This document shows positions 8,367-28,138 of a stretch of 32,728 nucleotides of DNA, one piece after another. Origin of the DNA: a virus. Made by a program: the position numbers and the translations under genes. Where the stretch lies: the IMG/VR virus record IMGVR_UViG_3300042914_002025, positions 1 through 32,728 of that record; one strand, written 5' to 3'. Position 1 is the stretch's first letter; every line of letters begins with the position of its first letter. Under the pieces are notes generated by a model. It was not told where the DNA came from, ran no database searches, and saw nothing but the letters and a program-made list of their open reading frames with translations.

Positions 8367-9015
8367 CGCTGCCCCGTCATCTTCGGCCCCTGCAAGCACC
8401 TCGGCGACGGCCGAGAAGCTCTACGGGGACGGGCAGAAGCCGAACGCGACCCAGGAGCCGCAAGCCGCAAAGGCGGCCGCTGCGGAAACCGTCGCGGATG
8501 ACCAGCCGGCAGCCGAGGCGAAGGCGGAAGCCAAGCCGCAGGCCGCGCCGGAGAAGTACGAGTTCAAGGCACAGGACGGACGTCAATTCGACGCCGAGGT
8601 GCTGAACACGTACTCCGAGGTCGCCCGCGAACTCAACCTGTCGCAGGAGGCGGCGCAGCGCGTCCTTGACGCAATGGCCCCCAAGATGGCCGAGCGTCAG
8701 GTGGCGCAGATCGAGGCGATCCGTGCGGAATGGGCGAACTCGTCCAAGACGGACAAGGAGTTCGGCGGCGAGAAGCTGTCGGAGAACCTGTCCACCGCGA
8801 AGAAGGCGCTCGATGCGTTCGGCACCACCGAACTCCGCACGCTGCTCAACGAGTCTGGCCTGGGCAACCACCCGGAGGTGATCCGGTTCATGGTCCGCGC
8901 AGGCAAGGCGATCAGTGAGGATCGGTTCGTCGCAGGAACGAAGGGTTCGGCGAAACCAGCCGGACCACGCTCGTTCAACGACTTCGCCGATGCTCTGTAT
9001 TCAAGTCAGTCCTAA
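8323..9015 (+). CDS. Capsid scaffolding protein
   Basis: 230 residues. The N-terminal 80 are Ala/Pro/Glu-rich and probably disordered, the middle is helical (coiled-coil-like LSQEAAQRVLDAMAPKMAER), and the C-terminal end is basic then Ser-rich. This composition, and its place directly before the major capsid gene, are typical of podoviral scaffolds that direct prohead assembly and then leave. AAGGAG lies 7-8 nt before ATG 8323. No protease motif was seen. Confidence 0.8.
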   Translation: MNEPTMVEAAATTTNAAPSSSAPASTSATAEKLYGDGQKPNATQEPQAAKAAAAETVADDQPAAEAKAEAKPQAAPEKYEFKAQDGRQFDAEVLNTYSEVARELNLSQEAAQRVLDAMAPKMAERQVAQIEAIRAEWANSSKTDKEFGGEKLSENLSTAKKALDAFGTTELRTLLNESGLGNHPEVIRFMVRAGKAISEDRFVAGTKGSAKPAGPRSFNDFADALYSSQS

Positions 9016-10895: not shown

Positions 10896-11576
10896 GTGCC
10901 AAGCGTCGTTGAAATCTGCAACCTCGCACTCGCGCACCTCGGCGACGATGCGACCATCGCCAGCATCGACCCGCCGGAGGGGTCCGCGCAGGCAGAGCAT
11001 TGCGCCCGGTTCTACCCCAGCGCACGGGACACGCTCCTCCAGATGCACAACTGGTCGTTCGCCTCGCGCCGCGTGAGCCTCGCGCAGGTGACGATGCCGT
11101 ACACCATGTGGAAGTACGCATACGCCGTACCGGGCGACATGATGACGGCCACCGCCGTCCTGCCGCCGGAGGCCGAGAGCGACTACTCGATCCGCGCATA
11201 CCCGGCCGACAAGTACGGGTACGGGTGGATCACGCCGCCGCTCCCGGGCGCAGGCGTGTACGTGCCGCAGGAATACGTCATCGAGACGGACACGCTCGGC
11301 AACAAGGTGATCTACACCAACCAGGAGAACGCGCTCCTGCGGTACCAGGCGCTCGTCACCGACCCGACCAAGTTCGACCCGCTGTTCGCCATCGCGCTAT
11401 CGCACCACCTCGCGGGGATGCTCGCCGGCCCGGTCGTGAAGGGTACGGAGGGTGCCACGGAAGGCAAGCGGCAGACGCAGCTTGCGCTCGGGTACGTGCA
11501 GATGGCCCGCGCCTCCGACAGCAACCAGCGCAACGTCAAGCCCGAACACATCACCTCTTGGATCTCGGGGCGCTGA
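10896..11576 (+). CDS. Tail tubular protein A (T7 gp11-like)
   Basis: 226 residues (T7 gp11 has 196). The N-terminal VVEICNLALAHLGDDATIAS, the ARFYPSARDTLLQMHNWSFA segment and the C-terminal helix are diagnostic of the family. Twelve copies normally form the ring below the portal (adaptor). The start is GTG 10896 with AGGAGG 5 nt upstream. The stop shares one base with the next start (TGATG), so it is coupled to tubular protein B. Confidence 0.93.
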   Translation: MPSVVEICNLALAHLGDDATIASIDPPEGSAQAEHCARFYPSARDTLLQMHNWSFASRRVSLAQVTMPYTMWKYAYAVPGDMMTATAVLPPEAESDYSIRAYPADKYGYGWITPPLPGAGVYVPQEYVIETDTLGNKVIYTNQENALLRYQALVTDPTKFDPLFAIALSHHLAGMLAGPVVKGTEGATEGKRQTQLALGYVQMARASDSNQRNVKPEHITSWISGR

Positions 11577-14314
11577 TGGCATCGGTACGGCACCTGTTCC
11601 GCTCGTTCGCAGGCGGCGAGATGTCGCCGGAGATGTTCGGCCGCGTGGACGATGCCAAGTTCCAGACGGGCGCTGCGAAGGTTCGGAACTTCATCCCGAT
11701 GCCGCAGGGGCCGCTCGAGAACCGTGCCGGCCTTGCGTTCGTCCGCGAGGTGAAGGACAGCACCAAGAAGGTGCGGCTGATCCCGTTCACCTACAGCACG
11801 ACGCAGACGATGGTGCTCGAGCTCGGAGCCGGGTACTTCCGGTTCCACACGCAGGGCGCGACGCTTGGGCCCGGGACGCCTGCCGCCTACAACGGCGCGA
11901 CCGCCTACGTGGTCGGGAACCTCGTTTCGAGCGGCGGCGTGAACTACTACTGCATCGCGAACACGACGGGCAACGCGCCGCCGAACGCCACCTACTGGTA
12001 TGCCATGCCGGCCGGGATCTACGAGATCCCGAACCCGTACGCCGAGGCCGACCTGTTCGACATCCACTACGTGCAGTCGGCCGACGTGCTGACGCTCGTG
12101 CACCCGAACTACGCGCCGCGTGAGCTGAAGCGCCTCGGTGCGACGAGTTGGACGCTCACAACGATCATCTTCGGAGCGGACATTTCCACACCGGGTGCGC
12201 CGACCGTCACGCCGACCAGGAGCGTCGGCGCGAACATCACCGGAATCAACGTCGGCACCGGGCACATCACCGTCAGCGCGGACGTCAAAGACGTCATATT
12301 CTCGGCAGGCGACACCATCTACATCAGCGGAATCACGTGGACTACGCCACCTACTGGCGGCGAACTGCTGAACGACAAGTTCTGGATCATTGACAAGTTC
12401 CACGGAGCTGGCGGAAACACGTTCTCCGTCCTGTCCGTGCAGAACGCGCTGGCCCCGACGCTCACCGGCGGCGTGTACGGAAGCGGTGGCCTCGTCCAGC
12501 CGATGACGCAGACGGCCGATCTCACGAACTACTACGTCATCACCGCCATCCCGGCGAACGGCGTTGACGAGACGCCACCGTCGAGCGCAGGAAACACGAC
12601 GAACAATCTGGCGATGGTCGGCGCGTACAACACGATCACCTGGTCGGCCGTGTCTGGCGCCGTTCGCTACAATGTCTACAAGCGGCAGAGCGGGCTGTAC
12701 GGGTACATCGGCCAGACCGAGACAACCTCGTTCGTGGACAACAACATCGCTCCCGACATGGGGATCTCTCCACCGACCGTTGACACGGTGTTATCGAGCA
12801 GCGGCAACTACCCAGGCGCGGTTTCGTACTTCGAGCAGCGCCGCATCTTCGCCGGCACGACGAACGCCCCGCAGACGCTGTGGATGACGCGCACCGGGAC
12901 CGAGAGCGACATGTCCTACCACATCCCGTTGCAGGACACCGACCGGATCAACTTCCGGGTCGCGGCACGGGAGGCGAACACCATCCGCCACATCGTCCCG
13001 CTGACGCAGCTCCTCCTGCTCACCAGCTCGGCGGAGTGGCGCGTCTCGCCCGTCAACAGCGACGTCATCACGCCGACCACCATCTCGGTGCGCCCGCAGT
13101 CGTACATCGGCGCCAACAACGTGCAGCCGTCAATCGTCAACAACACGGTGGTCTACTGCGCCGCACGCGGCGGACACGTGCGCGAACTCGGGTACTCCTG
13201 GCAGGCGAGCGGGTTCGTCACCGGCGACCTTTCGTTGCGCGCCGCGCACCTGTTCGACAACTACGACATCTCGGACATGTGCTACAGCAAGTCGCCGCAG
13301 CCCTTGCTGTGGTTCGTGTCAAGCACGGGCTACCTGCTGTCGCTGACCTATGTCCCGGACCAGCAGGTCGGGTCATGGGCATGGCATGACACCGACGGCA
13401 CCTTCGAGTCATGCACCGCCGTCGCGGAGGGCGCAGAGGACCGCCTGTACGTGGTCGTGAAGCGCACCATCGGCGGCGTCACCAAGCGGTACGTCGAGCG
13501 CATGGCGAGCCGGCAGGTCACGGAACTGAAGAACTGCTTCCACGTTGACAGCGGCCTGACATTCGACGGCACGAACACGGGGGCCACGACGGTCACGGTG
13601 ACGGGCGGCACGACATGGGGACCGAGCGAGGTGCTGACGATCACCGCCAGCAGCGCGATCTTCCAGTTCCCGTCAACGTCCACGCCGCCCACGGACATCA
13701 ACGACGCCATCGTGATGACGGACTCGGCTGGCAACAAGTACCGCCTTCGGATCATCGGCACGACCAGCACGACGGTGGCGACCGCCCGGGTGGATGTCAC
13801 CCTGCCGGCGGCGCTGCGGAACGTCGCCACGACCGTCTGGGCGTTCGCCCGCGACACCGTGAGCGGCCTGTCGCACCTCGAGGGAAAAACCGTCAGCATC
13901 CTTGCGGACGGCGCCGTGATGCCGCAGGTGACCGTCACGGGCGGCCAGGTGACCATCCAGCGCGCCTCCGCCCTCGTCCACGTCGGCCTCCCCTACGAGA
14001 GCGACCTCCAGACCATGCCGATTTCCATGAACGTGGACGGCTACGGGCAGGGCCGTTTCAAGAACGTCAACAAGGCGTGGATCCGGGTGTTCAAGTCAAG
14101 CGGCATCTTCATCGGGCCGGATGCGGACAACCTCGTGGAAGTCAAGCAGCGCACCACGGAGCCGTATGGCACGCCGCCCGGACTCAAGACCGACGAACTC
14201 GACGTCGATCTCACGCCGAGCTGGAAGGCGAGCGGACAGGTCTACATGCGGCAGGAGGATCCCCTTCCGCTTACCGTCGTTGGCATGACCCTTGAGGTCG
14301 TGCTGGGAGGCTGA
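11576..14314 (+). CDS. Tail tubular protein B / nozzle (T7 gp12-like)
   Basis: 912 residues (T7 gp12 has 794). The N-terminus VRHLFRSFAGGEMSPEMFGR, followed by KVRNFIPMPQGPLENRAG, is the nozzle-protein signature. A carbohydrate-binding-like insert lies near residues 100-142 (AYVVGNLVSSGGVNYYCIAN) and a fibronectin-III-like segment near 345-390 (TITWSAVSGAVRYNVYKR), both probably surface decorations. It forms the tail nozzle. Reading open further upstream is out-of-frame noise inside the previous gene. Confidence 0.92.
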   Translation: MASVRHLFRSFAGGEMSPEMFGRVDDAKFQTGAAKVRNFIPMPQGPLENRAGLAFVREVKDSTKKVRLIPFTYSTTQTMVLELGAGYFRFHTQGATLGPGTPAAYNGATAYVVGNLVSSGGVNYYCIANTTGNAPPNATYWYAMPAGIYEIPNPYAEADLFDIHYVQSADVLTLVHPNYAPRELKRLGATSWTLTTIIFGADISTPGAPTVTPTRSVGANITGINVGTGHITVSADVKDVIFSAGDTIYISGITWTTPPTGGELLNDKFWIIDKFHGAGGNTFSVLSVQNALAPTLTGGVYGSGGLVQPMTQTADLTNYYVITAIPANGVDETPPSSAGNTTNNLAMVGAYNTITWSAVSGAVRYNVYKRQSGLYGYIGQTETTSFVDNNIAPDMGISPPTVDTVLSSSGNYPGAVSYFEQRRIFAGTTNAPQTLWMTRTGTESDMSYHIPLQDTDRINFRVAAREANTIRHIVPLTQLLLLTSSAEWRVSPVNSDVITPTTISVRPQSYIGANNVQPSIVNNTVVYCAARGGHVRELGYSWQASGFVTGDLSLRAAHLFDNYDISDMCYSKSPQPLLWFVSSTGYLLSLTYVPDQQVGSWAWHDTDGTFESCTAVAEGAEDRLYVVVKRTIGGVTKRYVERMASRQVTELKNCFHVDSGLTFDGTNTGATTVTVTGGTTWGPSEVLTITASSAIFQFPSTSTPPTDINDAIVMTDSAGNKYRLRIIGTTSTTVATARVDVTLPAALRNVATTVWAFARDTVSGLSHLEGKTVSILADGAVMPQVTVTGGQVTIQRASALVHVGLPYESDLQTMPISMNVDGYGQGRFKNVNKAWIRVFKSSGIFIGPDADNLVEVKQRTTEPYGTPPGLKTDELDVDLTPSWKASGQVYMRQEDPLPLTVVGMTLEVVLGG

Positions 14315-14315
14315 C

Positions 14316-15023
14316 ATGGCAGTCGTACAGGTTCCATATGGAAGCAGCGGGACGTACCTGACCGGGTTGCAGCCGGGGCAGTCGTATGCCCAGGCGCAGG
14401 GCGCGGCGACGGGCGGCCTGACGAGCGGACTCGCCGAGGGGCTTCTCGTCGCTGGCCCCATCATGGCCATATTCGGGGCCGTCAACAGCGCCATCGGGTC
14501 GTACTACGGCGCCGTCAACCAGAAGAACCAGCTCGAGATGCAGGCGCAGAACCAGCGGTTCGCCGCCGAGATGTCCCGCATCAACCAGCGCGGGGCCGCC
14601 TTTACTGCCACGCAGATCGGTCGGGCTGGCCAGCAGCAGATCGGCCGCTACACGATGGGCGCAGGGCAGCAGCGGGCAAGCGCACGGGCGGGCCTGGCAG
14701 CCCGCGGCGCCACGCTCGGGGCAGGGACCGCCGGCGAGATCATCGGCAGCATGGACGTCATCAAGGAGATTGACGTCCTGTCAATGGACGCTGCCACCGT
14801 CCGGGCGCAGGAAGCCGCCAAGTTGCAGGCGTTCAATCTTGGGACGCAGGCGATGATGGCCGACATCTCGGCCAGGAACATACAGGCGACGGCAGGGACG
14901 ATCTACCCCGGCCTTCAGCTCGGGACGAGCCTGCTGGGGAGCGCAGCCGACATCGGCAGCACGTGGGCGCGCAACCGTCGCATCGAGGAACTGCTCGCAG
15001 GCGTGTCAACGCAGAGGCTCTGA
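14316..15023 (+). CDS. Internal virion protein (T7 gp14-like)
   Basis: 235 residues (T7 gp14 has 196). A hydrophobic Gly/Ala-rich segment near 33-58 (SGLAEGLLVAGPIMAIFGAV) is followed by long Gln/Ala-rich helices. Proteins of this kind are stored in the head and ejected first to form a channel in the outer membrane. GGGAGG lies 5 nt before ATG 14316. The gene order tubular B, gp14-like, large ejected proteins matches T7. Confidence 0.8.
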   Translation: MAVVQVPYGSSGTYLTGLQPGQSYAQAQGAATGGLTSGLAEGLLVAGPIMAIFGAVNSAIGSYYGAVNQKNQLEMQAQNQRFAAEMSRINQRGAAFTATQIGRAGQQQIGRYTMGAGQQRASARAGLAARGATLGAGTAGEIIGSMDVIKEIDVLSMDAATVRAQEAAKLQAFNLGTQAMMADISARNIQATAGTIYPGLQLGTSLLGSAADIGSTWARNRRIEELLAGVSTQRL

Positions 15024-15026
15024 TCC

Positions 15027-16811
15027 ATGCCGACCGTACCCACATCGTTCGTCCCGCAGGTCGCGCCCGCGCAGGGCGGTGACATCGGGCAGTTCCAGGC
15101 ACCCGGCGTGCAGCCGATGGAGAACCTGTTCCCGCAGCAGCAGGTCGCGCTGGGCCGCGCCATGATGCAGGCCGGCGAGGTCGCCTTCCGTGCAGGCAGC
15201 GCGATGCAGGATGACCTTGACAACGCCAACGCCAAGAGCGGCGACGTGGAGGGACTGAAGGCTGCCAACCCGATCTTCCAGAACTACATGGCCGCGCAGG
15301 GCAAGGACGCGGAGGACGGGTATCAGACGGCCGTTGACGGCGTGCGCTCGGCGTTCCAGGCGCAGATCGACCGGATGCCGACCGCGACGTCGAAGGCGAT
15401 GTACCAGCAGGTCGCCGCCCGGAACCTGTCGCAGTTCGAGTCACAGATGAACGCGCACCGCATGAAGGAGGCGCGGGTCTACGCGAAGAACGAGTCCGTC
15501 GCCCGCCGCGACGTGCGCGTGCAGATGGCCGTCAACTCGGTGCGACAGGCCGACGAGGTCAACCCCATGACGGGGAAGAAGTTCGGGATGGCCGAGATGG
15601 ACGTCAACCTCGCCGTTGCCGTCAACGAGCAGCGCGAGGCGATGAAGCTCGAGGGGATCTCGCAGGACAGCGCGCAGTGGAAGCTCGGCGAGCAGCAGGT
15701 CTACGAGTCGGCGCTCGACGGCATGACGAATGCCCTGATCGCGGACGGCAAGTACGCGGAGGCGCAGCAGCTCATTGACAGGTTCGCCGATGGCCGCGTC
15801 GGCGAGAAGGCGGTGAAGGCAATGAACCAGAGCCTCGAGGCGAACCGCCAGGTCGCGCTCGTCGAGCAGCTCGCTGACTCCATCCGACGCGACGGCTACG
15901 CGCACGCCGCCGCCGACCCGAAGCAGTACCCCGAGCGCGATGGCACGGACGTCCCGCCGGAGGATCTGCGCGGTGCGATGGACCGTGCGAACATGATCGA
16001 GGATCCGAAGATGCGGCGCCTCGTCAGGGACAAGATCAAGTCGGACTACGACGCCGAGGAGGCGCTGCTCAACGTCGAGTACCGCAACAACTACGACGCG
16101 GTCGCGCAGTACCTTGCCGTTCCCGGGAACCGCCTTGCCGACCTTCCGCCGAGGCAGAAGGCGATGCTGACGCCGGCGCACCTGTCGCACTTCCAGGCGC
16201 AGGAGTTCGGCGAGGCCGACGCCCGCGCCGATTACGAGGTCGCGCTGAACCCGTCGCGTGTACTCGACGCAGGGTGGATGCAGCAGCAGATGGGCGCGAT
16301 CTCGCCTGCCAAGTATGCGGAGTACGTCAAGGCGGCGCGTGAGCCGCAGAAGATCATCGACTCGACGCTGGACGAGGATCAGGTTAAGCAGACGCTGGTG
16401 GACGCCGGCCTCCGTGACATCGCCTATCCGAACCGCAGGGACGAGGATGAGGTTGACACCGGACTGCGGTTCCGCGAGAACGTGACGAGCATGGTGGATG
16501 CGGAGCAGCGAAGGCTGAACCGCAAGCTGTCGCGTGACGAGAAGCAGTCCATCATCGACCGCGCCATCGTGCAGCAGGCGACCATCAGGAAGCCCGGAAT
16601 GATCTACGGTTACAACGAGATCACCAAGCCGATGGCGACCATGACGCCAGAGGAAATGTCGATGAAGTTCGAGCGGTTCGTGCAGATGGAGGACGTCAAG
16701 ATCCCGCAGGACGAATATGTCCGTGCGATCAACGCGCTCGAGGGCGTCGGCATCGCTGTCCCGACCAACCGACAGATCAAGGCATACATCATGCGGAGCC
16801 GAGCCAAGTGA
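15027..16811 (+). CDS. Internal virion protein (T7 gp15-like position)
   Basis: 594 residues, almost wholly helical and charged after a Pro/Gln-rich N-terminus (T7 gp15 has 747). No enzyme motif is visible. It lies in the gp15 position between the gp14-like gene and the giant protein, and is probably part of the internal core that is ejected to build the trans-periplasmic channel. The start at 15027 is 3 nt after the previous stop. The stop overlaps the next start by 4 nt (GTGA). Confidence 0.75.
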   Translation: MPTVPTSFVPQVAPAQGGDIGQFQAPGVQPMENLFPQQQVALGRAMMQAGEVAFRAGSAMQDDLDNANAKSGDVEGLKAANPIFQNYMAAQGKDAEDGYQTAVDGVRSAFQAQIDRMPTATSKAMYQQVAARNLSQFESQMNAHRMKEARVYAKNESVARRDVRVQMAVNSVRQADEVNPMTGKKFGMAEMDVNLAVAVNEQREAMKLEGISQDSAQWKLGEQQVYESALDGMTNALIADGKYAEAQQLIDRFADGRVGEKAVKAMNQSLEANRQVALVEQLADSIRRDGYAHAAADPKQYPERDGTDVPPEDLRGAMDRANMIEDPKMRRLVRDKIKSDYDAEEALLNVEYRNNYDAVAQYLAVPGNRLADLPPRQKAMLTPAHLSHFQAQEFGEADARADYEVALNPSRVLDAGWMQQQMGAISPAKYAEYVKAAREPQKIIDSTLDEDQVKQTLVDAGLRDIAYPNRRDEDEVDTGLRFRENVTSMVDAEQRRLNRKLSRDEKQSIIDRAIVQQATIRKPGMIYGYNEITKPMATMTPEEMSMKFERFVQMEDVKIPQDEYVRAINALEGVGIAVPTNRQIKAYIMRSRAK

Positions 16812-19800
16812 TCGAACCGGACATCAACGAGCGCATGGCGCGGTTCGCGCCGTCACAGAACGTCGGCAACGAGCCGGACCCAATCGCGCTTGAGGTGCTT
16901 GCCGAGACGGAGGCGGATGCGCCGCCGCCGATGGCGCCCGGTTTCGATCCCATCGCCGTGCAGATCGCCCGCGAGTCGCAGGATGAGATGATGGCGACCC
17001 TGCGCGGGGCGTCGGCAGTAAACCCCGACCAGGCCGCGAGGGCGCAGCGCATCGGGCAGCAGGTCGGCATCGGTCAGGACGTGGTGCTGCGGAACATGGC
17101 CGAGATGGAGCGCGAGGTCGTTGCTCGGCAGGCAATCGACCGCGACCTCATGCGGACGGCCCCGAACCTCGCACGGTTTCTGGGTCAGCGCGAGTTCGCC
17201 ACCATCGCGCACGATGACATTGACAACCTGACCAAGACCGAGCGGGTGTTCAAGTGGTTCGCCGGCATCCCGAAGGACGTCGAGGAAGGTCTGTCCCGCG
17301 CAGTCGCCACCGCCGAACTCGGCAAGATGTACGAGGCGCAAATGCGCGGCGTGGAGCCGACGTGGCTCGACCGTGTGGTCATCCAGGGCTACAACGACGA
17401 ACTCCGGCGGCTGTCGAAGGAATCCGGGTTCATCGAGAGTGCGGCGAATCTGGTTGGCATCCGTGTTGAGATGGCGGCGCAGGTGCCTGAACAGGTGCTG
17501 ATGGGGACGGTAATGGGCGGTGCGGCCGGATTGGTCGGCGGTCCGTTCGCCCCGGCAACGGTTCCGGCTGGAATGGCTATCGGCGCTACTGCTGGCCTGA
17601 CGGTTGGCATGGGCCGCGCCGGATACATCCTAGAGGCGGGCAACGCCTACGGCAGCATGGTTGAGGAGGCGGACACCGTCCTGCGCCAGCGCAGGGACGC
17701 GGGTGAGATCGACGCCGCGACCTATGAGTCGGAAATGCGCGAGGTGCGCGACCGTGCGCGGACCATTGCCACGGGCGTCGGCGTGGTGAACGCGGGCCTG
17801 GAGCTGGTCGGGCTGAAGATGATCGCCGCCCCGTTCCGCGAGGCATTCAAGGGTGCCGTGCGCCGCGCCACCGCGCAGGCCGTGACGCAGCAGACCACCC
17901 GCGCCGCGCTCGGCAGGGCGGGGATGCAGTACGGACTTGCCATCGCGGGCGAGACGGGAACCGAGGTAATGCAGGAGATCGTCACCGTCGCCGGCGAGGA
18001 GCTGAACAGTTACGGTGCTGACCTGCCTCTCAAGATGTCAACGGAGGAAGGCCGCACAGAAGTCGCGCAGCGGCTGGTGGACACGGCGGTGGAGACGGCG
18101 AAGGGAATGGCACTCGTCGGCCTTCCCGGCCCCGTTGTCAACTACTACGTCAACACCCGCAAGGTCGCGGAGGCGCGCAAGGCCGAGCGGTTCTTCACGG
18201 ACCTCGCGGACGTCAGCAAGCAGGACAAGGTCGCCGAGCGCAGCCCTGCCGCCTACGAGCGGTTCCTCGCTGCCCAGGCCGAAGGCACGCAAGCCGAGAC
18301 GATCTACGTCGATGCACGCACGATGCAGTCCGTGCTTCAGCAGGCGCAGCGCGCAGACCCCGCCCTGACCGACGAGGTCATTGACGAGGCGATGCCTGGG
18401 ATCAGGGAGCAGATCGCGCAGCAGCTCGAGACGGGCGGCGACGTGACGATCCCGACAGCCACCTTCGGGGCGCGGCTGGCGCGGACTGATCTCGGAAGGT
18501 CGCTGATCCCGCACATGCGACTGAACCCGGACGCGCTTTCGGTGGACGAGGCGGTGCGATACCGGGGCCAGATGGAGGAGCGCCGGCAGGAGGCGATGCG
18601 CCTGATGCAGGAGCAGGACGCCGCCGGCACGTCGTTCTCGCAGGAGGCCGAAACGGTGCGCGACGATGTTCGTGCGCGACTTGAGGCGGCAGGCAGGAGC
18701 CGCGAGGAGGCCGACATCGGGTCGCTGCTGTACCGGGATTTCGTGGTGACGAACGCGGCGCGCATGGGCATGACTCCGGCGCAGTTCCAGGCCGAGCGCG
18801 GCCTGCGCGAGATCGTCGGCGCGGAGGTCGGCGTTGCGCCGCTAGAGCAGGCTGCGACGATGAACGCCGACTACCTCGCCGCTGTCGAGCGCGGCGACAT
18901 GGAAGCGGCGCAGCGCATGGTGGATGAGGCGGCGAAGGCACGCGGGATGATGTTTCGTGGTCACAAACGCAATCGGCCACAAGGTGTTACGGAAACATTT
19001 GTTTCTGAATCACGAGAGCAAGCACAACAGTTTGCCAATCAACACAGCGACGGCGTCGTGTCGTTGGTTCGATTCACCAAACCGCTGCGCGTCTATGAAC
19101 AACTAATTCCGTGGCAGGAATATCAAGACAGTTGGAGAAACAGCGTTTTGCTGAAGGGCTATGACGCAGTGCGCGTTATTGAGCCAAATGGACAAGACAC
19201 ATCGCTAGCAATACGAAACCAAGAATCGATTGGATTTGAGTCCGCCGACCCCGTCACCTACGACGAGGCCGGCAACGTCATCCCACTGTCGCGCCGCTTT
19301 GACATCACCAGCCCGCGCATCTTTGAGCAGGCGGCGATGTCTACTCGCGTGCCGTCAGCGAAGGGCATGGAGATGGCGGCCCTCGACGGCATGCTGCTGG
19401 CCGACTGGGACGCGATGAAGGACAACGAGAAGCTGATCGCCGGCAACCTCGCCAAGATCAAGGAACTCGGGTTCCCCGTTAAGCTGGACGAAACGAAGAC
19501 GCCTCGCGAGCAGCTTGAGCAGTTCATGGAGGCAGTCGCCGACAACCTGGACTACCTGTACGAGCAGATGGATCCGACCCAGCGCGAACGCGCCAAGATG
19601 TGGTACGTGGGCGGCCGGCGGATCGTGGAGTGGCTTGCTGCGCGTTACGGCATCACCGACATGCAGGCGGCCGCCATGCTCGCCGTGCTGTCACCGCAGA
19701 AGAACTGGTTCGAGAACGTGTCGATGGCCGACCGCATCGGCGACATCCTGACCTCTGCACGCAACGAGCGGTGGTCGCCCGAGATGGAGAAGAACTTCCG

Positions 19801-22800
19801 CCGCATGGTGGAGGATGTCCGCGCCCGCGTCACCATCACGGAGAGGCAGATCGCGGACAACGAGAAGCCGGAGAAGCCGACGAAGCCGCGCACGGAGGAA
19901 TCGCTCGAGGACTTCAAGGCGCGCAAGAAGTCGTTTGACGCACGCCGTCCTCGCCTCAAGGCGAAGTACGAGCGCGACTTGGCGCAATGGGAGCAGGAAC
20001 TCGAGGAATACGAGGTCGAGCTTGCCGAGCTGCAGGAATCCGGCGAATCGACCACGATGATCCGTGCGGACATGGCGGCTCACCGGCGCGAGCGCCCGAA
20101 GTCGCCGCGCATGCCCGGACGGGTTCTCGCCGAGTCCGCGGTCGAATTCGCTGCGCGCAACGAGCAGTACGAGAAGGATCTGGCCGAATGGGAGAAGCGC
20201 GGCACGCGCCTCGCGAAGATCCTCAAGTCGAAGCAGGACAGGATCAAGTACCTCGATGACCTGTCCGCGTCACCCCGCATGCAGGCCATGCGCGAAGGCA
20301 CCCTGCAGACCGTTCTTGCCTCAAAGGATCTCGAGCTTGCAGGCATGTTCGTCCGCATGTTCGATGAGGAACACAACGACCGGACGTTCGCCATCATCAC
20401 GCCGGAGGGTGGGATGGCCGGCCCGAGCATGGGCGCGTCCGGGCCGATGTCCATGCGGTGGGGTTCGTACTCGACCATCCAGAAGGCCATCAGCGTTTAC
20501 GAGGACGGCCGCGCCGAGAACGTGCATCACCAGATCGGCAAGGCGCACAAGGTCCGCAACTTCTACAACAACCTGTTCGATCCGACCAATGTCAATGCCG
20601 CGACGATTGACACCCATGCCATCGCAGCCGGCGCGCTCATGCCGTTGTCGGCCAGCGATGACATCGTCGGCTGGGGTCTTGGCGCTGGCGTGTCGGACGC
20701 GAAGCTCGGCCTGCACGGCGGCTACCCGATCCTGTTCGAGGCATACCGCAGGGCCGCGGCGCGGCGCGGCATCATCGCCCGCGAGGAGCAGTCGATCACG
20801 TGGGAGGCCATCCGCGGCCTGTTCGTCGCTGCCGAGAAGAAGACCCTCAAGCCGATCATCGCCGAGGTCTGGGGCCGCTACATGAAGGGCGACATCAGCC
20901 TCGAGGATGCACGCGCCCAGGTATTCAAGCTGGCCGGGGGCATCAAGACGCCGGAGTGGGTCGCGCAGCCTGCCAACCTCCCGGTCGGTTCCACGTACAG
21001 CGGTCGCTCGCGTTCGCTCATGGACGCGATGACGCCGGCGATCCAGCAGCAGATGCAGCAGATGACGCGCCTGATGTTCGAGATCGCGCCTGACCTGCGG
21101 GACGAGAAACTATCGGCTGCCTGGAAGGCACTCCCGATGGAGATTCGGCACGCCATCAGCAGGTCGGTGATGGCGAAGATCGTGCCGAAGATCCTCAAGG
21201 AGTACGGCGTGACGGCTGCCATCGAGGAACAGATCGGCGGCTGGGAGGGCGGGACGGAACTGTCATTTGCGATGTCGCTTCCGTCCACCACGCTGGTGCG
21301 CCAGATATCGCAGGCGCTGCGCGAGGTGCTGTCGCAGAAAGCCATCTTCTCGATCTCGGAGCAGAAGTTCGAGGGAGCAAGTCGTGCCGGCCTGGTGGTC
21401 ATTGACCTGCAGCCCGGAACGACCCCCGAGCAGATCACGGAACTGTACGAGAAACGCCTGTACCAAGTCACGAAACTCGGCCATTCCACGGTCGGGTCAA
21501 GCATGGTTATCGGGTTGAATGAAGGCGTTGACAGCGGTGAACTTGCTCGTAGAATTGACGCGGAACTTGGCAATGATCCGCTCATTGTCCGCATCAAGCA
21601 CGGAGAAGCATGGAGCCTCTATGACGAAAGCCCAGAACAGACCGTCGAAGGTGCAGCCGTTGACGAAAGAGGACTTGCGCGAGTTGACGAACGGCGGCGT
21701 CTTGATGCTCTTCGGGAACAGGCGACCGAACTCATCGTCAAGGAACTCCGGGCAGCGGGACTCTACGAGCAGGCAGCAGCCGGACCAGCCCGCGGCGGGT
21801 TCGACTTCGGCCGGCTGAAGATCCTGCTCGGCGAGCGCGCCGACGCCACGACATTCCTGCACGAACTGGTGCATTTCTACATGCACACCTACACGACCGC
21901 GGCGGCAGAGGGCCGTGCGGACGCGCAGATGCTCGCGGATCTCGACATCCTGTTCCGTTGGCTAAACGTGGAAGGCGATACGCCGGAGGCACGGCTCAAG
22001 ACCTACCTCGCCAGGACGTTCGAGCAGCGGAGGCCCGATGAGGAGGCAATCGCCTACAACAGCGAAATCTACATGTGGGAAGGCAAGGCACCGAGCGCCG
22101 AGCTGCGCGGGGTGTTCGAGCGCATGCGCACGTTCTTCAACCGCGTCTACAAGTCGATCCGTGACGAGCTGAACGCGATCTACCGCCGCGAGTTCGGGAA
22201 GGATCTCCCGATCCTCACGGGCGAGGTGAGGCAGGTGTTCGACCGCATGCTCGCAGCACCGGAGGCCATCCGCCGGCAGCAGGCCATTGACGGCATCAAG
22301 CCTGCGTTCCTGACCCGCGAGCAGGCGGGGGTTGACGAGGCGCAGTGGGCGGAACACCAGGCCGCGCTGGCCGATGCCGAGGCCATCGCCATCAACGACA
22401 TGACGAAGGCGAGCCTCCGCACGGTGCAGTGGCTGTCGAACGCCCGCAGCCGCATCGTCAAGGAGATGCAGTCGAAGCACGACGCCAAGCGCAAGGAGGT
22501 GCGCGATGAGGTTGCCGCGCAGGTCCGAATGGAGCCGGCGTACCGGGCGCAGGCGTACCTGCGGTACGGCAAGTTCATCGACGCGGACGGGCAGGAGGTT
22601 GAGGTCGATGGACCGCACAAGCTCGACCTGGACACGGTCAAGCAGATGTACGAGCTGGAGCCGGAGGCGCTGCGCCCGGACGTTACGGCGATGGCGCGTG
22701 GCAAGTACGGGTTCGTCGGCAAGGACGGCCTGAACCCCGACATGATCGCCGAGACGTTCGGCTACTCGAGCGGCGACCAGATGATCCGCGCCGTGATGGG

Positions 22801-25636
22801 ACTGAAGCCTATCAAGGAGGCCATCGACGAGCGCACGGACGCCGTGATGGTCGAGCGGTTCAGCGACCTGAACTCCAAGGCCGCGGTGGACGCCGAGGTG
22901 CAGAAGTCGCTCCACAACGAGGCACGCGCCCGGTTCGTCGCCATCGAGCTGAAGTTCGCGGCGAAGGCGACGGAGCCGACCCGCGTGATCGTGGAGGCCG
23001 CCCGTCAGGCAGCCCGTGACATCATCGCCGCCAAGAAGGTGCGCGACGTGCGCCCGAGCGAGCATGTCGCCGCCGAGGCGCGGGCGTCGAAGGACGCCGT
23101 CATGCTCGCTGGCAAGACGGAGATCCCGGACAGCCTGAAGGTCCGTTACCCGACCGGGACGGTGAACGAGGCGCTGATCCGCGCCAAGCGGCAGGAGATG
23201 TACCAGAACCAGCTCGCCGAGGAGGCGCTCCGCGTCAAGGACGAGGTGGACAAGGACGTCAAGTACCTGCGCCGCATCCTGCGCGACGAGAACGTCAAGC
23301 GCATGGGCGCCGACGCCGCCGACCAGGTTGCAGAGCTGCTGTCGCGGTTCGACGTGGCCGCCGTCCCGCTGAAGATCCTCGACCGCAGGAAGCAGACGCT
23401 GTCGGCATGGATGGAGGCAAAGGCCGATGGCGGCATCGTCCCGGACATCGCGCCCGAGCTGCTCGAGGCCGGCCGCCGCGTGAACTACCGCGAGATGACC
23501 GTGGCCGAGTTCCGCGACCTGGTGTCGGCGGTGAAGCAGATCGAGTACGTCGGCAAGAACGAGCGCAAGCTCCAGCTCGCCGAGGAGCGTGCCGAGTTCG
23601 AGGAGAAGCGCGACGATATCGTCACCCGCATTCGTGCGACCGGGCGCCTGCGCGGCCTTGATATCGACCCGCGCAGCCCGCTCACGAACATCGGGCGGAC
23701 GGTGTCCAAGCTCCAGGCGTTCGCCGCTGCCCATCTCAAGGCTGCGTCCATCGCCCGTGTCATGGACGGCGGAAAGGATGACGGCCCGCTGTGGAACACC
23801 GTGATCCGCACGGCGAACGCCGCCGCCGACATGGAGACGCGCATGCGCTCCGAGGCGACGGCCAAGCTCGCAGAGATCCTGAAGCCCGTGTTCGCGCTCG
23901 GCAACATGGGCGGCAAGGGCATGTTCTTCCGGTCGATCAACCGCAGCCTGAACCGCGAGGCACGGATCGCCATCGCCCTGAACATGGGCAACGCCGGCAA
24001 CATGCAGCGCCTGCTTGACGGCGAGGGCTGGAACATGGCCCAGGTGCAGCCCATCCTCGAGAGCCTGACCGCCGCGGAATGGAACGCGGTGCAGCAGGTG
24101 TGGGACTTCCTCGAGACGTACCGCCCGCTGGTCGCCGCGAAGGAGCGCCGCCTGTACGGCAAGGAGCCGAACTGGGTGGAGCCGCAGCCGCTGACCGTGC
24201 GGACATCGGACGGGCAGACGCTGACCATGCGCGGCGGCTATTACCCCGTCAAGTACGACCCCGTGGCGAGCGACCGGGTGGCGACCTTCGATGAGGTGCA
24301 GGAGGCCAAGGACGCGCTCCGAGGCACCTACACAGCCGCCACGACCCGCCGCTCGTTCACGAAGGCCCGTGCCGAGAAGGTGGTCGGTCGCCCGATCCTC
24401 TACACGCTTGACGCCGCGTTCAGCGGTGTCAACGACGTGATCCACGACCTGGCATGGCATGAGTGGCTGATCTCCACGAACCGCCTGCTGCGGGACGAGA
24501 AGTTCGCCAACGCCGTGCGCGAGACGCGGGGGCCGGAGTTCCTGCGGCAGTTGCGGGAGTGGGCGAAGGCGAACGCCGCCGGCGACCGCCCCGCGAACGT
24601 CGAGGGCGCGCTGTCGTGGCTGCGGCAGGGCATCAGCGCGTCGGGACTCGGGTTCAACGTGATGAGCGCCGCGCTCCAGATCACCGGGTTCAACCAGAGC
24701 GTGGTTCGCGTGGGCGCGAAGTGGGTCGGACTCGGGATCGCCGAGTTCACGGCCAGCCCGCTCGTCACCAGCCAGTTCGTGCGCGAGAAGTCATCGTTCA
24801 TGGCCGAGCGCCAGCGGACGCAGTTCCGCGAGCTGAACGAACTCCGTAACACCGTGCGAGGCAAGGGCGCCGGCGTCCGCAAGGTGCTGGCGCAGGCTTA
24901 CGTGGCGATGATGACCATGCAGCGGGCCGTTGACACCCCGACGTGGGTGGGCGCCTACCGCAAGGCGCTGACCGGCGGCAAGGACGATGCGACCGCCGTG
25001 GCGCTCGCCGACCAGGCTGTCAAGGACTCGCAGGGCAGCGGCCTGACGGCAGACCTTGCCGCCATCGAGCGCGGTGGCCCGGGCCTGAAGTTGTTCACCG
25101 TGTTCTACTCGTACATGAACACCGTCTACAACATGGCGGCGGTGCAGACCTACACGGCGCGTGGGCGCGGAAAGCTCGCCGCCGACTACGTCATGCTGCT
25201 GGTTGTCCCGGTGGTACTCGGACACGCCATCAAGGCGTTGCTGACGCCCGATGCAGGCGATGACGATTTCGACCCGGAGGCGCTGGCACGGAAACTGGCC
25301 GCCGAGGAACTGTCGTTCCTGATGGGGACGATGGTCGTGGCCCGCGAGTTCGGCGGGGCGGCGCAGCTCCTGACGGGCGCGGAGGGCGCACGGATGGGCT
25401 ACGGCGGCCCTGCCGGCGTCCGCGCCATCGGCGAGGCGTACAACCTTGCCACGCAGACCGGGCAGATGGAGTTCGACCGTGCCTTCGTCCGTTCGGCGAT
25501 CAACACGCTCGGCGCGTTCACGGGACTCCCGAGCGCGCAGATCAACCGCACCATCGACGGCGTCGAGGCGATCCTCGAGGGCGAGGTCGAGGGCGTCGGC
25601 GCGGTGATCGCTCCTCTCACTGGTGTCAAGAAGTAG
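16808..25636 (+). CDS. Giant internal virion/polyvalent protein (gp16 position)
   Basis: 2942 residues from a GTG start (T7 gp16 has 1318). Segments in order: a hydrophobic Gly/Ala-rich stretch (about 230-270); helices; an ADP-ribosyltransferase-like segment (about 712-815; FRGH 716-719, a TFVSES turn and a C-terminal DEAGNVIPLSRRF); an HhH/glycosylase-like region (about 930-1270, LAVLSPQKNWFENV to IDTHA) split by a coiled coil (about 1010-1150); a zinc-peptidase motif HELVH (1685-1689); long helices with an ETFGYSSGDQMIRAV pattern; and a hydrophobic C-terminus (about 2611-2645 and 2794-2812). This fits the polyvalent proteins described by Iyer and colleagues in 2017. Probably ejected with the DNA. 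No lytic transglycosylase motif was seen. Confidence 0.85.
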   Translation: MIEPDINERMARFAPSQNVGNEPDPIALEVLAETEADAPPPMAPGFDPIAVQIARESQDEMMATLRGASAVNPDQAARAQRIGQQVGIGQDVVLRNMAEMEREVVARQAIDRDLMRTAPNLARFLGQREFATIAHDDIDNLTKTERVFKWFAGIPKDVEEGLSRAVATAELGKMYEAQMRGVEPTWLDRVVIQGYNDELRRLSKESGFIESAANLVGIRVEMAAQVPEQVLMGTVMGGAAGLVGGPFAPATVPAGMAIGATAGLTVGMGRAGYILEAGNAYGSMVEEADTVLRQRRDAGEIDAATYESEMREVRDRARTIATGVGVVNAGLELVGLKMIAAPFREAFKGAVRRATAQAVTQQTTRAALGRAGMQYGLAIAGETGTEVMQEIVTVAGEELNSYGADLPLKMSTEEGRTEVAQRLVDTAVETAKGMALVGLPGPVVNYYVNTRKVAEARKAERFFTDLADVSKQDKVAERSPAAYERFLAAQAEGTQAETIYVDARTMQSVLQQAQRADPALTDEVIDEAMPGIREQIAQQLETGGDVTIPTATFGARLARTDLGRSLIPHMRLNPDALSVDEAVRYRGQMEERRQEAMRLMQEQDAAGTSFSQEAETVRDDVRARLEAAGRSREEADIGSLLYRDFVVTNAARMGMTPAQFQAERGLREIVGAEVGVAPLEQAATMNADYLAAVERGDMEAAQRMVDEAAKARGMMFRGHKRNRPQGVTETFVSESREQAQQFANQHSDGVVSLVRFTKPLRVYEQLIPWQEYQDSWRNSVLLKGYDAVRVIEPNGQDTSLAIRNQESIGFESADPVTYDEAGNVIPLSRRFDITSPRIFEQAAMSTRVPSAKGMEMAALDGMLLADWDAMKDNEKLIAGNLAKIKELGFPVKLDETKTPREQLEQFMEAVADNLDYLYEQMDPTQRERAKMWYVGGRRIVEWLAARYGITDMQAAAMLAVLSPQKNWFENVSMADRIGDILTSARNERWSPEMEKNFRRMVEDVRARVTITERQIADNEKPEKPTKPRTEESLEDFKARKKSFDARRPRLKAKYERDLAQWEQELEEYEVELAELQESGESTTMIRADMAAHRRERPKSPRMPGRVLAESAVEFAARNEQYEKDLAEWEKRGTRLAKILKSKQDRIKYLDDLSASPRMQAMREGTLQTVLASKDLELAGMFVRMFDEEHNDRTFAIITPEGGMAGPSMGASGPMSMRWGSYSTIQKAISVYEDGRAENVHHQIGKAHKVRNFYNNLFDPTNVNAATIDTHAIAAGALMPLSASDDIVGWGLGAGVSDAKLGLHGGYPILFEAYRRAAARRGIIAREEQSITWEAIRGLFVAAEKKTLKPIIAEVWGRYMKGDISLEDARAQVFKLAGGIKTPEWVAQPANLPVGSTYSGRSRSLMDAMTPAIQQQMQQMTRLMFEIAPDLRDEKLSAAWKALPMEIRHAISRSVMAKIVPKILKEYGVTAAIEEQIGGWEGGTELSFAMSLPSTTLVRQISQALREVLSQKAIFSISEQKFEGASRAGLVVIDLQPGTTPEQITELYEKRLYQVTKLGHSTVGSSMVIGLNEGVDSGELARRIDAELGNDPLIVRIKHGEAWSLYDESPEQTVEGAAVDERGLARVDERRRLDALREQATELIVKELRAAGLYEQAAAGPARGGFDFGRLKILLGERADATTFLHELVHFYMHTYTTAAAEGRADAQMLADLDILFRWLNVEGDTPEARLKTYLARTFEQRRPDEEAIAYNSEIYMWEGKAPSAELRGVFERMRTFFNRVYKSIRDELNAIYRREFGKDLPILTGEVRQVFDRMLAAPEAIRRQQAIDGIKPAFLTREQAGVDEAQWAEHQAALADAEAIAINDMTKASLRTVQWLSNARSRIVKEMQSKHDAKRKEVRDEVAAQVRMEPAYRAQAYLRYGKFIDADGQEVEVDGPHKLDLDTVKQMYELEPEALRPDVTAMARGKYGFVGKDGLNPDMIAETFGYSSGDQMIRAVMGLKPIKEAIDERTDAVMVERFSDLNSKAAVDAEVQKSLHNEARARFVAIELKFAAKATEPTRVIVEAARQAARDIIAAKKVRDVRPSEHVAAEARASKDAVMLAGKTEIPDSLKVRYPTGTVNEALIRAKRQEMYQNQLAEEALRVKDEVDKDVKYLRRILRDENVKRMGADAADQVAELLSRFDVAAVPLKILDRRKQTLSAWMEAKADGGIVPDIAPELLEAGRRVNYREMTVAEFRDLVSAVKQIEYVGKNERKLQLAEERAEFEEKRDDIVTRIRATGRLRGLDIDPRSPLTNIGRTVSKLQAFAAAHLKAASIARVMDGGKDDGPLWNTVIRTANAAADMETRMRSEATAKLAEILKPVFALGNMGGKGMFFRSINRSLNREARIAIALNMGNAGNMQRLLDGEGWNMAQVQPILESLTAAEWNAVQQVWDFLETYRPLVAAKERRLYGKEPNWVEPQPLTVRTSDGQTLTMRGGYYPVKYDPVASDRVATFDEVQEAKDALRGTYTAATTRRSFTKARAEKVVGRPILYTLDAAFSGVNDVIHDLAWHEWLISTNRLLRDEKFANAVRETRGPEFLRQLREWAKANAAGDRPANVEGALSWLRQGISASGLGFNVMSAALQITGFNQSVVRVGAKWVGLGIAEFTASPLVTSQFVREKSSFMAERQRTQFRELNELRNTVRGKGAGVRKVLAQAYVAMMTMQRAVDTPTWVGAYRKALTGGKDDATAVALADQAVKDSQGSGLTADLAAIERGGPGLKLFTVFYSYMNTVYNMAAVQTYTARGRGKLAADYVMLLVVPVVLGHAIKALLTPDAGDDDFDPEALARKLAAEELSFLMGTMVVAREFGGAAQLLTGAEGARMGYGGPAGVRAIGEAYNLATQTGQMEFDRAFVRSAINTLGAFTGLPSAQINRTIDGVEAILEGEVEGVGAVIAPLTGVKK

Positions 25637-25687: not shown

Positions 25688-28126
25688 ATGACGATTTCCA
25701 GCACAACGCGAATTGCGGGTCCGTTCACGGGCAACGGCACGGCATCCACGTTCCCCTTCACCTTCAAGGTGTTCGCGGCCGCAGACCTCGACGTTGTCCG
25801 GCTGAACAGTTCCACGGGCGTCGAGTCCACGCTCGTCCTGAACTCCGACTACAGCGTCGCCCTCAACGGCGACCAGAACTCGAACCCGGGCGGCAGCATC
25901 ACGCTGCTTGCCGGCGCGCTTGCGACCGGGTTCACGCTCGTCATCACCTCGGACATCGCGAACCTCCAGCCCACGGACCTGACGAACCAGGGCGGGTTCT
26001 ACCCTGAGGTCATCACGGACGCGCTGGACCGGGCGACCATCCAGATCCAGCAGATCAGCGACATCGGCGACCGGACCATCAAGATCCCGATCACGGACGG
26101 CAGCCTGAACATGGAGCTGCCGACCGCGGATGCGCGTGCGAACTCGTTCCTCGCCTTCGACGCCAACGGCCTCCCCACGGCGATCACGGCTGGAACGAGC
26201 GGCGCGCCCACGACGATCACGCGCCAGGTGTTCAGCGGCACGGGTTCGCAGACGGTGTTCACGCTCGCCTCGGACCCCGGTGCGCTCGGCAACAGCGCAC
26301 AGGTCTACATCGGCGGCGTATACCAGCAGCGCAGCACCTACACGATTGCCGGCACGACCCTGACGTTCTCGCAGGCTCCGGTTGCCGGGACCGACAACAT
26401 CGAGTTCGTGAACTTCCTGACGAGCAACATCGGCGCGACGAGCGCGGACCTCGTCACCTACACGCCGAGCGGCGTCGGCGCAGTCGCCCGCAGCGCGGCG
26501 AGCAAGTTCGGCGATGTGATTAGCGTCAAGGATTTCGGTGCTGTTGGAGACGATGTCGCCAACGACACAGCAGCTTTGCAGGCAGCAATCAATGCCGCAT
26601 ACGCAGCGAACAAGGCGCTATACATCCCAGGCGGAAAATATCGCTTCACGACACTGACTTTTGCCCCAACTGATTCTGTTTCTACCGGGCAGGGACTGCG
26701 AATCTATGGAGATTCCACAGGCAATGGAACTGGTGGGCGCGGAACCATTTTGCGGACAACGGCATCGAGCGGCGCTGCCTTCACGATCAATGCATCAACT
26801 GGTGCGTGTTATGTTGAGCTTGATGGATTGACGTTTGCTGGTAACCCGAACGTCACGTCTGGCGTCCAATTCAACCAAAACTGGTTGGCAAAAATCAAGA
26901 ATTGCGTGTTTACCGGGTTCTCAAATGCTTCTGCCAAGGCATTGTGGTTCTATACGAGCGCGGTTTCTGTTGGATATTCCGGTTCATCGTTCGTACAGAA
27001 CTGCATCTTTCAAAGCAACAGCACTGGCATTTTCAGCGGCGGAGCTGCATCGGGAACCCCAGCGGTAAATTTCGTTCAATACCGAGACTGTTATTTTCTT
27101 GACCATACCGTTGCAGCCGTGCAAGTTGGCGCAAGTGGTGGACCAGCAATGCAGGCGCGATCCCACATTTTCAACGGGTGTGGATTTGAAGGGAATGCAC
27201 GCGACATCCTGACTTATGCGTCGATGTACGCCATGTCGGTAACTGGCTGCTACTTCGAAACCATTACTCCGAGCCACACAGCTCCACGCATTGAGATTGC
27301 GACTGATGGCGTTAGCGCACCTGGCGAATCAATCAACATCAGTGAGTGCTATTTCCAGTACGACAATCTTGCCGCCGGCAACTCAATCATTTCGATTGCG
27401 TCCGGAAGCATCAATGTCAAGAAAAATCATTGCTCGAACGGCAACCAGACTGACAGGTATTTCCTGTCGGCCACGCACGCAACGAAGTCGGATTTTGAGC
27501 CAAGCACGACCCCGCCTGGTGTCACTGCATTTCCGAGCAGGATTTCAAGTACGTCAAGCATTGGTGCTGCCAAAATCTATACGCAAGCGGTGAATACCGA
27601 ATTGCGTCCCGAGCCTCTTGCGAGCAACACCGCAAATGCCGCGAGGATTTATCAGGGGGCTGGATCGCCGAGCAACTCTCTTGGCTCAAGCGGCGATCTG
27701 TACATCAACAATGCAGTGTCTGGGGAAAACATTGAATCTCGTGATGCAATCTGGCAGAAGGGTTCGTCTTTCTGGAAGCGAGTCACATACCTTCAGTCGA
27801 TTGACAACATCTCATATGCATCGGTGATGACCCCGGATCTCGCCAAGGGTTCTATCCTTCAAATCACGCCGAACAACAGCAGTGCGTTCACGATTGATCC
27901 GGTTGCCAATGCTGGTCCTGGCCAGATTTACAGCATCGCAATTATCAATACAACTGGTGGCGCTCTTGGCGCAGCAACCTTTTCGACTGCTTCCGGCGGT
28001 TACAAACTTGCTGGAGCGTGGACCCAGCCCGCTAATGGTTTCCGAAGGATTGTGACCTTCTACTACGACCCAGGAAATTTGTTCAGTTACGAAATTGCGC
28101 GATCCGCTGCTGACGTTGCAAACTAA
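25688..28126 (+). CDS. Tailspike/tail fibre with beta-helix domain
   Basis: 812 residues. Residues 1-140 are the podoviral fibre adaptor (FPFTFKVFAAADLDVVRLN, then a LTNQGGFYPEVITDALDRAT motif), which binds the tail. A second beta domain spans about 165-250. The joint ISVKDFGAVGDDVANDTAAL begins a pectate-lyase-like right-handed beta-helix that runs to about 600, then a C-terminal trimerisation or receptor region. AGGGAG lies about 10 nt before ATG. Codon use is GC-rich until about 26515 and then turns distinctly AT-rich, which points to exchange of the receptor-binding part. Depolymerase activity is likely but not shown. Confidence 0.9.
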   Translation: MTISSTTRIAGPFTGNGTASTFPFTFKVFAAADLDVVRLNSSTGVESTLVLNSDYSVALNGDQNSNPGGSITLLAGALATGFTLVITSDIANLQPTDLTNQGGFYPEVITDALDRATIQIQQISDIGDRTIKIPITDGSLNMELPTADARANSFLAFDANGLPTAITAGTSGAPTTITRQVFSGTGSQTVFTLASDPGALGNSAQVYIGGVYQQRSTYTIAGTTLTFSQAPVAGTDNIEFVNFLTSNIGATSADLVTYTPSGVGAVARSAASKFGDVISVKDFGAVGDDVANDTAALQAAINAAYAANKALYIPGGKYRFTTLTFAPTDSVSTGQGLRIYGDSTGNGTGGRGTILRTTASSGAAFTINASTGACYVELDGLTFAGNPNVTSGVQFNQNWLAKIKNCVFTGFSNASAKALWFYTSAVSVGYSGSSFVQNCIFQSNSTGIFSGGAASGTPAVNFVQYRDCYFLDHTVAAVQVGASGGPAMQARSHIFNGCGFEGNARDILTYASMYAMSVTGCYFETITPSHTAPRIEIATDGVSAPGESINISECYFQYDNLAAGNSIISIASGSINVKKNHCSNGNQTDRYFLSATHATKSDFEPSTTPPGVTAFPSRISSTSSIGAAKIYTQAVNTELRPEPLASNTANAARIYQGAGSPSNSLGSSGDLYINNAVSGENIESRDAIWQKGSSFWKRVTYLQSIDNISYASVMTPDLAKGSILQITPNNSSAFTIDPVANAGPGQIYSIAIINTTGGALGAATFSTASGGYKLAGAWTQPANGFRRIVTFYYDPGNLFSYEIARSAADVAN

Positions 28127-28138
28127 AAAGTAACTTCT

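What the first reader, a model, noticed from the sequence alone, without database searches (positions are those of the whole stretch)
16808..25636. A 2942-residue polyvalent protein in the ejected-protein slot
One gene of nearly 9 kb fills the T7 gp16 position but carries effector-like segments: ADP-ribosyltransferase-like, HhH-like and an HELVH zinc peptidase. Polyvalent proteins are proposed to enter the host with the DNA and counter defences. Fusing them to the internal core would deliver several enzymes before any phage gene is transcribed.
Basis: partly seen in the sequence, partly recalled or inferred. Interest (0 to 1): 0.75.

Follow-up and report, generated by a model that had tools for sequence, protein, structure and literature searches.

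The report
Phage entry protein with swappable cargo
One giant phage protein, encoded where short-tailed phages keep the proteins they inject, carries enzyme-like cargo domains that close relatives swap wholesale, and a short glutamine motif recurs at the junctions between domains, which suggests (not yet shown) that the protein cuts itself into separate tools during infection.

Summary
The 2942-codon gene is real and lies in the T7 gene 14-15-16-17 order. It is a relative of Bordetella phage BPP-1 Bbp10. Conserved outer parts (about aa 1-612 and 1821-2942) enclose a variable stretch that here holds an ART-fold domain, a DUF7178 domain with a long helical insert plus a tandem ferredoxin-like domain, and an HExxH zinc peptidase. 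The ART and peptidase readings hold, but the ART lacks the family's H-Y-D residues; the HhH reading is not supported. Polyvalent proteins and their peptidase are known (Iyer 2017; CLCA_X 2013). Added here: (1) the cargo is a fast-exchanging cassette. A relative with 98% identical C-terminal chassis carries different cargo, and among pairs with at least 90% identical chassis 11 of 22 share under 30% of cargo. (2) A motif, [LFYM]-x-Q, often followed by Ala-Ala, sits at module junctions and 20-55 residues before the peptidase's HExxH in 67 of 69 relatives (control stretch 11), replicated in 23 of 25 prophages (6) and 48 of 53 further viral contigs (11). I propose it marks self-cleavage sites that release cargo from an injected polyprotein. 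Neither cleavage nor virion packaging of this protein was shown.

The parts
16808..25636 (+). whole gene, 2942 aa, 325 kDa polyvalent protein of the Bbp10 type
16808..18643 (+). N-terminal chassis, aa 1-612 (conserved in relatives with unrelated cargo)
16997..17254 (+). LPD22 domain, aa 64-149
   Evidence: Pfam PF18834 E 2.8e-18
18635..18649 (+). F610-S-Q-E-A, candidate junction site at the end of the N-chassis (weaker class of site: 19 of 61 relatives have a comparable one)
18842..18856 (+). L679-E-Q-A-A, candidate junction site, chassis to ART
18950..19246 (+). ART-fold core, aa about 715-813 (H-Y-D positions read R-F-D)
19322..19336 (+). F839-E-Q-A-A, candidate junction site, ART to DUF7178, in predicted disorder
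19388..20842 (+). DUF7178 domain, aa about 861-1345, enzyme-like invariants (WY, SP, W, N, K1248, D1268-x-H1270, QS, W, R)
   Evidence: Pfam PF23802 E 2.9e-22
19739..20473 (+). long helical (coiled-coil-like) insert inside DUF7178, between the two Pfam stretches (aa 978-1222)
21053..21613 (+). tandem ferredoxin-like domain, aa about 1416-1602, follows DUF7178 in most DUF7178 relatives
21764..21778 (+). Y1653-E-Q-A-A, candidate cleavage site directly before the peptidase
21785..22267 (+). zinc peptidase (MPTase / CLCA_X-type), aa about 1660-1820; HELVH at 21860-21874
22268..25633 (+). C-terminal chassis, aa about 1821-2942 (phrog_9880)
11000..14314 (+). neighbour: tail protein
14292..15023 (+). 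neighbour: internal virion protein-like (gp14 slot)
15027..16811 (+). neighbour: 594-aa protein in the gp15 slot, weak endolysin-PHROG match
25688..28126 (+). neighbour: tail fibre/spike protein (gp17 slot)

Best explanation
It is a virion-carried polyprotein. The two conserved ends form the ejection machinery of a short-tailed phage (gp16 slot). Between them is an exchangeable cargo bay with enzyme-like domains; in this phage an ART-fold domain and a DUF7178/ferredoxin-like pair. The protein is packaged, enters the host with or ahead of the DNA, and its own zinc peptidase cuts at Gln sites ([LFYM]-x-Q, mostly followed by a small residue) in the linkers. That would separate a 66-kDa N-chassis, an 18-kDa ART module, a 91-kDa DUF7178 module and a 142-kDa peptidase plus C-chassis, so that each effector can go to its own target. 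Shown by sequence: the chassis/cargo split, the cassette exchange, the domain identities stated, and the motif's enrichment and placement. Inferred: packaging, injection, that the motif is the cut site, that this peptidase makes the cut, and what the cargo does (most likely counters host defences or modifies host targets).
For: Cargo bay: L002 is 92-98% identical to the window in most N- and C-chassis blocks but has different cargo; short islands of 88-94% DNA identity flank the ART slot. Among relatives with at least 90% identical chassis, 11 of 22 pairs share under 30% of cargo, including 99% chassis with 0% cargo shared. Two relatives have an emptied ART slot with only its edges left. Cargo repertoire over 43 relatives: ART-PolyVal 23, PBECR5 7, DUF7178 5, RadC, GGDEF, SAM lyase, ASCH. 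Motif: [FLMY]xQAA 59 times in cargo against 4.7 in shuffles (max 12), but 19 against 21.9 in the chassis; none in the other virion proteins of the window that were scanned, except one YVQSA in the tail protein; 61 occurrences use 45 different DNA strings and all four Ala codons, so the peptide is what is kept. [FLMY]xQ lies 20-55 residues before HExxH in 67/69 (control stretch 11), then with the same pattern in 23/25 prophages (control 6) and 48/53 new viral contigs (control 11). Two of the three junction sites fall in or next to stretches modelled as disordered. CLCA metallopeptidases, to which the Bbp10 peptidase region was linked as a CLCA_X seed, self-cleave (PMC3650047). Iyer et al. proposed autoprocessing of polyvalent proteins by such peptidases (PMC5512222).
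Against: No cleavage or virion presence has been measured for this protein, and I found no proteomics for relatives. N4 virion RNAP and P1 DdrB, which also carry HExxH peptidases, lack the motif before the peptidase, so it is not a rule for all polyvalent proteins. The cargo [FLMY]xQAA test was designed after seeing the motif and its occurrences are partly related by descent. A conserved linker could have a structural role instead. A Gln-specific zinc peptidase would be unusual. The ART may be inactive.
Confidence: 0.55

Rival explanations
1. Ordinary polyvalent protein that works as one uncut chain, as N4 virion RNAP does. The Gln motif is a conserved structural linker (flexible hinge or helix cap), and the peptidase acts on host proteins or is needed for encapsidation.
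For: N4 virion RNAP with an HExxH domain is reported as packaged unprocessed (PMC5512222). The motif lies in linkers by position.
Against: N4 RNAP lacks this motif, so it is not a like-for-like case. A hinge would not need one Gln in over 90% of relatives while its neighbours and the spacer length vary.
Confidence: 0.25
2. The linkers are seams kept for recombination: short shared DNA that lets phages exchange cargo modules, with no protease role.
For: Islands of DNA identity flank the ART slot in the L002/window pair, and ART slots with emptied cores keep both edges.
Against: The junction motif is encoded by 45 different DNA strings among 61 occurrences. The pre-peptidase site persists in distant relatives whose surrounding protein sequence has diverged.
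Confidence: 0.12
3. The sites are cut by a different protease (prohead or host protease) during head maturation.
For: Large phages mature head and ejection proteins with prohead proteases (PMC10052503, title and abstract only). PHROG names 8323-9015 a protease family.
Against: The motif is absent from the capsid, scaffold-like and other head proteins of the window, and the 8323-9015 product looks like an Ala-rich scaffold. The most conserved site is coupled to the peptidase domain itself.
Confidence: 0.08

Closest known systems
Bordetella phage BPP-1 Bbp10 (Rauchvirus)
   Same: same slot, same N- and C-chassis, same peptidase (aa 345-661 and 1659-2933 of the window align at about 29% and 48%) with a Gln site just before the peptidase (FYQ)
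   Different: 2052 aa against 2942; only about 180 aa between the chassis and the peptidase, so the large effector cargo is absent
Polyvalent proteins (Iyer et al. 2017, PMC5512222)
   Same: several unrelated enzyme-like domains plus an LPD and a zincin peptidase in one late-gene protein
   Different: the paper proposes processing; a search of its main text found no cleavage-site motif. DUF7178 and the tandem ferredoxin-like domain are cargo that I did not see in the passages read.
CLCA_X zinc peptidases (PMC3650047, 2013)
   Same: Bbp10 residues 700-1000 were a seed of this family; HExxH kept
   Different: the consensus Asp of HExxHxxxD is H1693 here, and Glu in Bbp10 itself
Phage N4 virion RNA polymerase and P1 DdrB
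   Same: giant virion-delivered or virion-processed proteins with an HExxH domain
   Different: neither shows the Gln motif in front of the peptidase

Membership tests
Polyvalent proteins | two or more biochemically unrelated domains in one chain | tested here: met
   ART fold, DUF7178, zinc peptidase, LPD22
Polyvalent proteins | encoded among late virion genes | tested here: met
Polyvalent proteins | delivered into the host at entry | not testable with these tools
   needs virion and infected-cell proteomics
Bbp10-type ejection-slot protein | shared chassis (phrog_9880) and T7-like gene order gp14-15-16-17 | tested here: met
   phrog_9880 E 0; BPP-1 order
ART-PolyVal | ART fold | tested here: met
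   rows 1-18 all ART-fold, Z 6.1 to 2.8; model pLDDT only 64.5
ART-PolyVal | H-Y-D active site | tested here: not met
   aligned residues R717, F and D786 in alignment A6; no Pfam match for the window while 23 of 43 relatives' cargos match
HhH-GPD DNA glycosylase | profile similarity to PF00730 | tested here: not met
   no match at E <= 10; hhalign no better than reversed decoys
HhH-GPD DNA glycosylase | HhH-GPD fold | tested here: inconclusive
   structure matches were filled by another domain of the model; hhalign with these shallow profiles also found only 6.6% for a true pair (MutY-AlkA)
Zincin-like MPTase | HExxH plus a conserved downstream Glu | tested here: met
   H1685, E1686, H1689, E1746, E1753 all 100% of 50
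CLCA_X | HExxHxxxD consensus | tested here: inconclusive
   H1693 at that place; the seed Bbp10 has Glu
CLCA-type self-cleaving peptidase | autoproteolysis | not testable with these tools
   needs an in vitro assay

The most novel reading that the evidence does not exclude
The [LFYM]-x-Q linkers are the cut sites of the Bbp10-family zinc peptidase, so hundreds of short-tailed phages inject a self-processing polyprotein whose cargo bay is exchanged as a cassette while the ejection chassis stays fixed.
Probability: 0.45. Interest if true: 0.75.

Novelty: new variant of a known kind. Interest (0 to 1): 0.56.

Why it matters
That zincin peptidases cut polyvalent proteins into units has been proposed since 2017, without a site motif in the text I could search. 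A conserved Gln motif at module junctions and in front of the peptidase makes that proposal testable with one mutant or one proteomics run. The fixed chassis with fast-swapped cargo also gives a way to list injected phage effectors: whatever sits between these two sites in a relative is a candidate, including domains such as DUF7178 that have no known function.

Tried and rejected
HhH/DNA-glycosylase reading of aa 900-1280: PF00730 search of the window and hhalign of DUF7178 profiles against 15-28 Nth/MutY/AlkA-type sequences gave nothing above reversed decoys. By eye, G-x-x-HK-V-x-N-F followed by [VI]D-[TR]-H resembles the HhH-GPD signature, and one actinophage member is annotated 'glycosylase'; I left this as a lead, as control pairs also scored poorly. 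In some searches some hhalign runs failed on input format and were not used. An alignment mixing fragments of different domains (A4) misplaced rows and was not used for folding; only its peptidase columns were used, for conservation. Foldseek of the 986-residue model found only the tandem ferredoxin-like domain, best rows RND-pump porter domains at Z 10.7; this is a common fold and no function was read from it. Motif in N4 RNAP and P1 DdrB/DarA: not present at the matching place. PDB sequence searches of DUF7178 and of the A5 profile gave no significant match. NCBIfam gave nothing. Literature search for virion proteomics of Bbp10 relatives found none.

Full report
WHAT IS THERE. The gene at 16808-25636 is open for 2942 codons from a GTG start. 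It is coding: 100 base shuffles never gave an open run over 330 codons, and third positions are 85.7% G+C. Upstream lie terminase, portal, a scaffold-like protein, major head protein, a tail protein, an internal-virion-protein-like gene and a 594-aa protein; downstream are tail fibre or spike genes. This is the T7 gene 14-15-16-17 order, with this gene in the gene 16 place. The record is a 32,728-base virus fragment.

RELATIVES. The protein is related to Bbp10 of Bordetella phage BPP-1 and to giant proteins of 39-47 kb phages of Xanthomonas, Vibrio, Pseudomonas, Caulobacter, Cobetia, Limnohabitans and others. 80 viral-contig and 33 bacterial-contig relatives were fetched; where named, the bacterial hosts are mostly Betaproteobacteria.

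CHASSIS AND CARGO. Relatives align with aa 1 to about 680 and about 1650-2942, and mostly not in between. The closest relative, L002, is the clearest case: nucleotide identity is 92-98% in most N- and C-chassis blocks, drops from aa 620, vanishes through the cargo, is intermediate over the peptidase (about 0.5-0.8 in most blocks, rising near its end) and recovers from aa 1820. Two islands, 18845-18939 (88%) and 19239-19339 (94%), frame the ART slot. Over relatives with at least 90% identical C-chassis, 11 of 22 pairs share less than 30% of their cargo. BPP-1 has only about 180 aa in this place. Pfam on 43 cargos found ART-PolyVal in 23, PBECR5 in 7, DUF7178 in 5, and single GGDEF, RadC, DUF3293, SAM lyase and ASCH matches. 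In L013 and L017 the ART core is gone but its two edges remain.

DOMAINS IN THIS PHAGE. aa 64-149 is LPD22. aa 680-845 was folded with 17 ART-slot relatives (pLDDT 64.5). In the structural comparison the first 18 rows are all ART-fold proteins (RES toxins, ParT, exotoxin A domain III, PARPs), Z 6.1 down to 2.8, and the next, unrelated row has Z 2.6. Z 6 is modest, but the consistency of the list supports the fold. The H-Y-D residues of the polyvalent ART family read R-F-D in the alignment. aa 861-1345 is DUF7178, split by a long helical insert. DUF7178 is widespread: at least 486 stretches in viral contigs encode a relative, including insert-free proteins of about 210-275 aa, and Roseobacter phage CRP-738 has it in the second gene after the portal, an independent link to virion genes. 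Invariant residues look enzymatic. I could not confirm an HhH-GPD relation. aa 1416-1602 is a tandem ferredoxin-like domain that follows DUF7178 in most DUF7178 proteins compared. aa 1660-1820 is the zinc peptidase, with HExxH and two downstream Glu invariant in 50 of 50. The Bbp10 region containing this domain was a seed of the CLCA_X family in 2013, placed next to the self-cleaving CLCA proteins.

THE JUNCTION MOTIF. In the window the sequence [L/F/Y]-E-Q-A-A occurs at aa 679, 839 and 1653: at the chassis/ART, ART/DUF7178 and cargo/peptidase junctions. Across relatives, [FLMY]xQAA occurs 59 times in cargo against 4.7 expected (maximum 12 in 300 shuffles), and 19 times against 21.9 in the chassis. 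Within the pattern [FLMY]-x-Z-A-A in cargo, only Gln stands far above composition at position Z (59 against 6). A wider test, [FLMY]xQ 20-55 residues before HExxH, gave 67 of 69 (control stretch 11, shuffle maximum 33) in the discovery set. The same pattern and window were then applied to two new sets: prophages 23 of 25 (control 6, shuffle maximum 13) and non-redundant new viral contigs 48 of 53 (control 11, shuffle maximum 26). The residue after Gln is most often Gly, Ala or Pro; the spacer to the peptidase varies. The cargo occurrences are written in 45 different DNA strings, so the peptide is under selection. In the models, the 839 site falls in a low-confidence stretch and the 1653 site abuts one. 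None of the other virion proteins scanned in the window has [FLMY]xQ[ASP][AS], except one in the tail protein. N4 RNAP, which the literature describes as packaged uncut, lacks it.

INTERPRETATION. The simplest account that joins these facts is a self-processing injected polyprotein: a fixed ejection chassis, an exchangeable cargo bay, a peptidase, and Gln sites between the modules. Shown by sequence: chassis, exchange, domain assignments as qualified, motif enrichment and its replication. Inferred: packaging, injection, cleavage at these sites, and the role of the cargo. Rivals are an uncut protein with structural linkers, recombination seams, or cutting by another protease; the confidences are given in the fields.

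PLACE AMONG KNOWN THINGS. Polyvalent proteins, polyvalent ARTs and their zincin peptidases are known (PMC5512222), as is a link of Bbp10 to CLCA peptidases (PMC3650047). A search of the main text of PMC5512222 for 'cleavage site' found only a reference title, and a wider paper search found no such motif described; subscription papers and supplements were not searched, so priority is not claimed.

Noticed in passing
L007 (PQ492659.1, Limnohabitans phage DC33): The record is labelled Inoviridae (filamentous phages), but it is a 39-kb genome with a 3125-aa Bbp10-type protein and podovirus-like gene order; the taxonomy label looks wrong.
   Followed up: no
relatives of 16808-25636 in public records (L003-L006): Labels such as 'crystallin beta/gamma motif-containing protein', 'lysin' and 'lysis protein' are spread over this family; nothing found here supports them for the giant protein.
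   Followed up: partly
25688-29758: The tail fibre/spike genes drop to about 55% G+C against 61-67% in most of the window, which suggests recent import.
   Followed up: no
8323-9015: PHROG names this family 'protease', but the product is Ala-rich and looks like a scaffold protein.
   Followed up: partly
15027-16811: The gp15-slot neighbour is annotated with an M23 peptidase or lysozyme in relatives L004, L006 and L008; in the window only a weak endolysin-PHROG match is seen.
   Followed up: no
30545-31441: A very Gly-rich 298-aa protein after the fibre genes (phrog_2295), function unknown.
   Followed up: no
L139:4810-7317 (Roseobacter phage CRP-738 gp40): DUF7178 sits in an 835-aa protein two genes after the portal gene, an independent association of this domain with virion genes.
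   Followed up: partly
L013:12626-12856 and L017:9651-9866: Emptied ART slots: the first and last about 30 residues of the ART module are joined with the core missing.
   Followed up: yes
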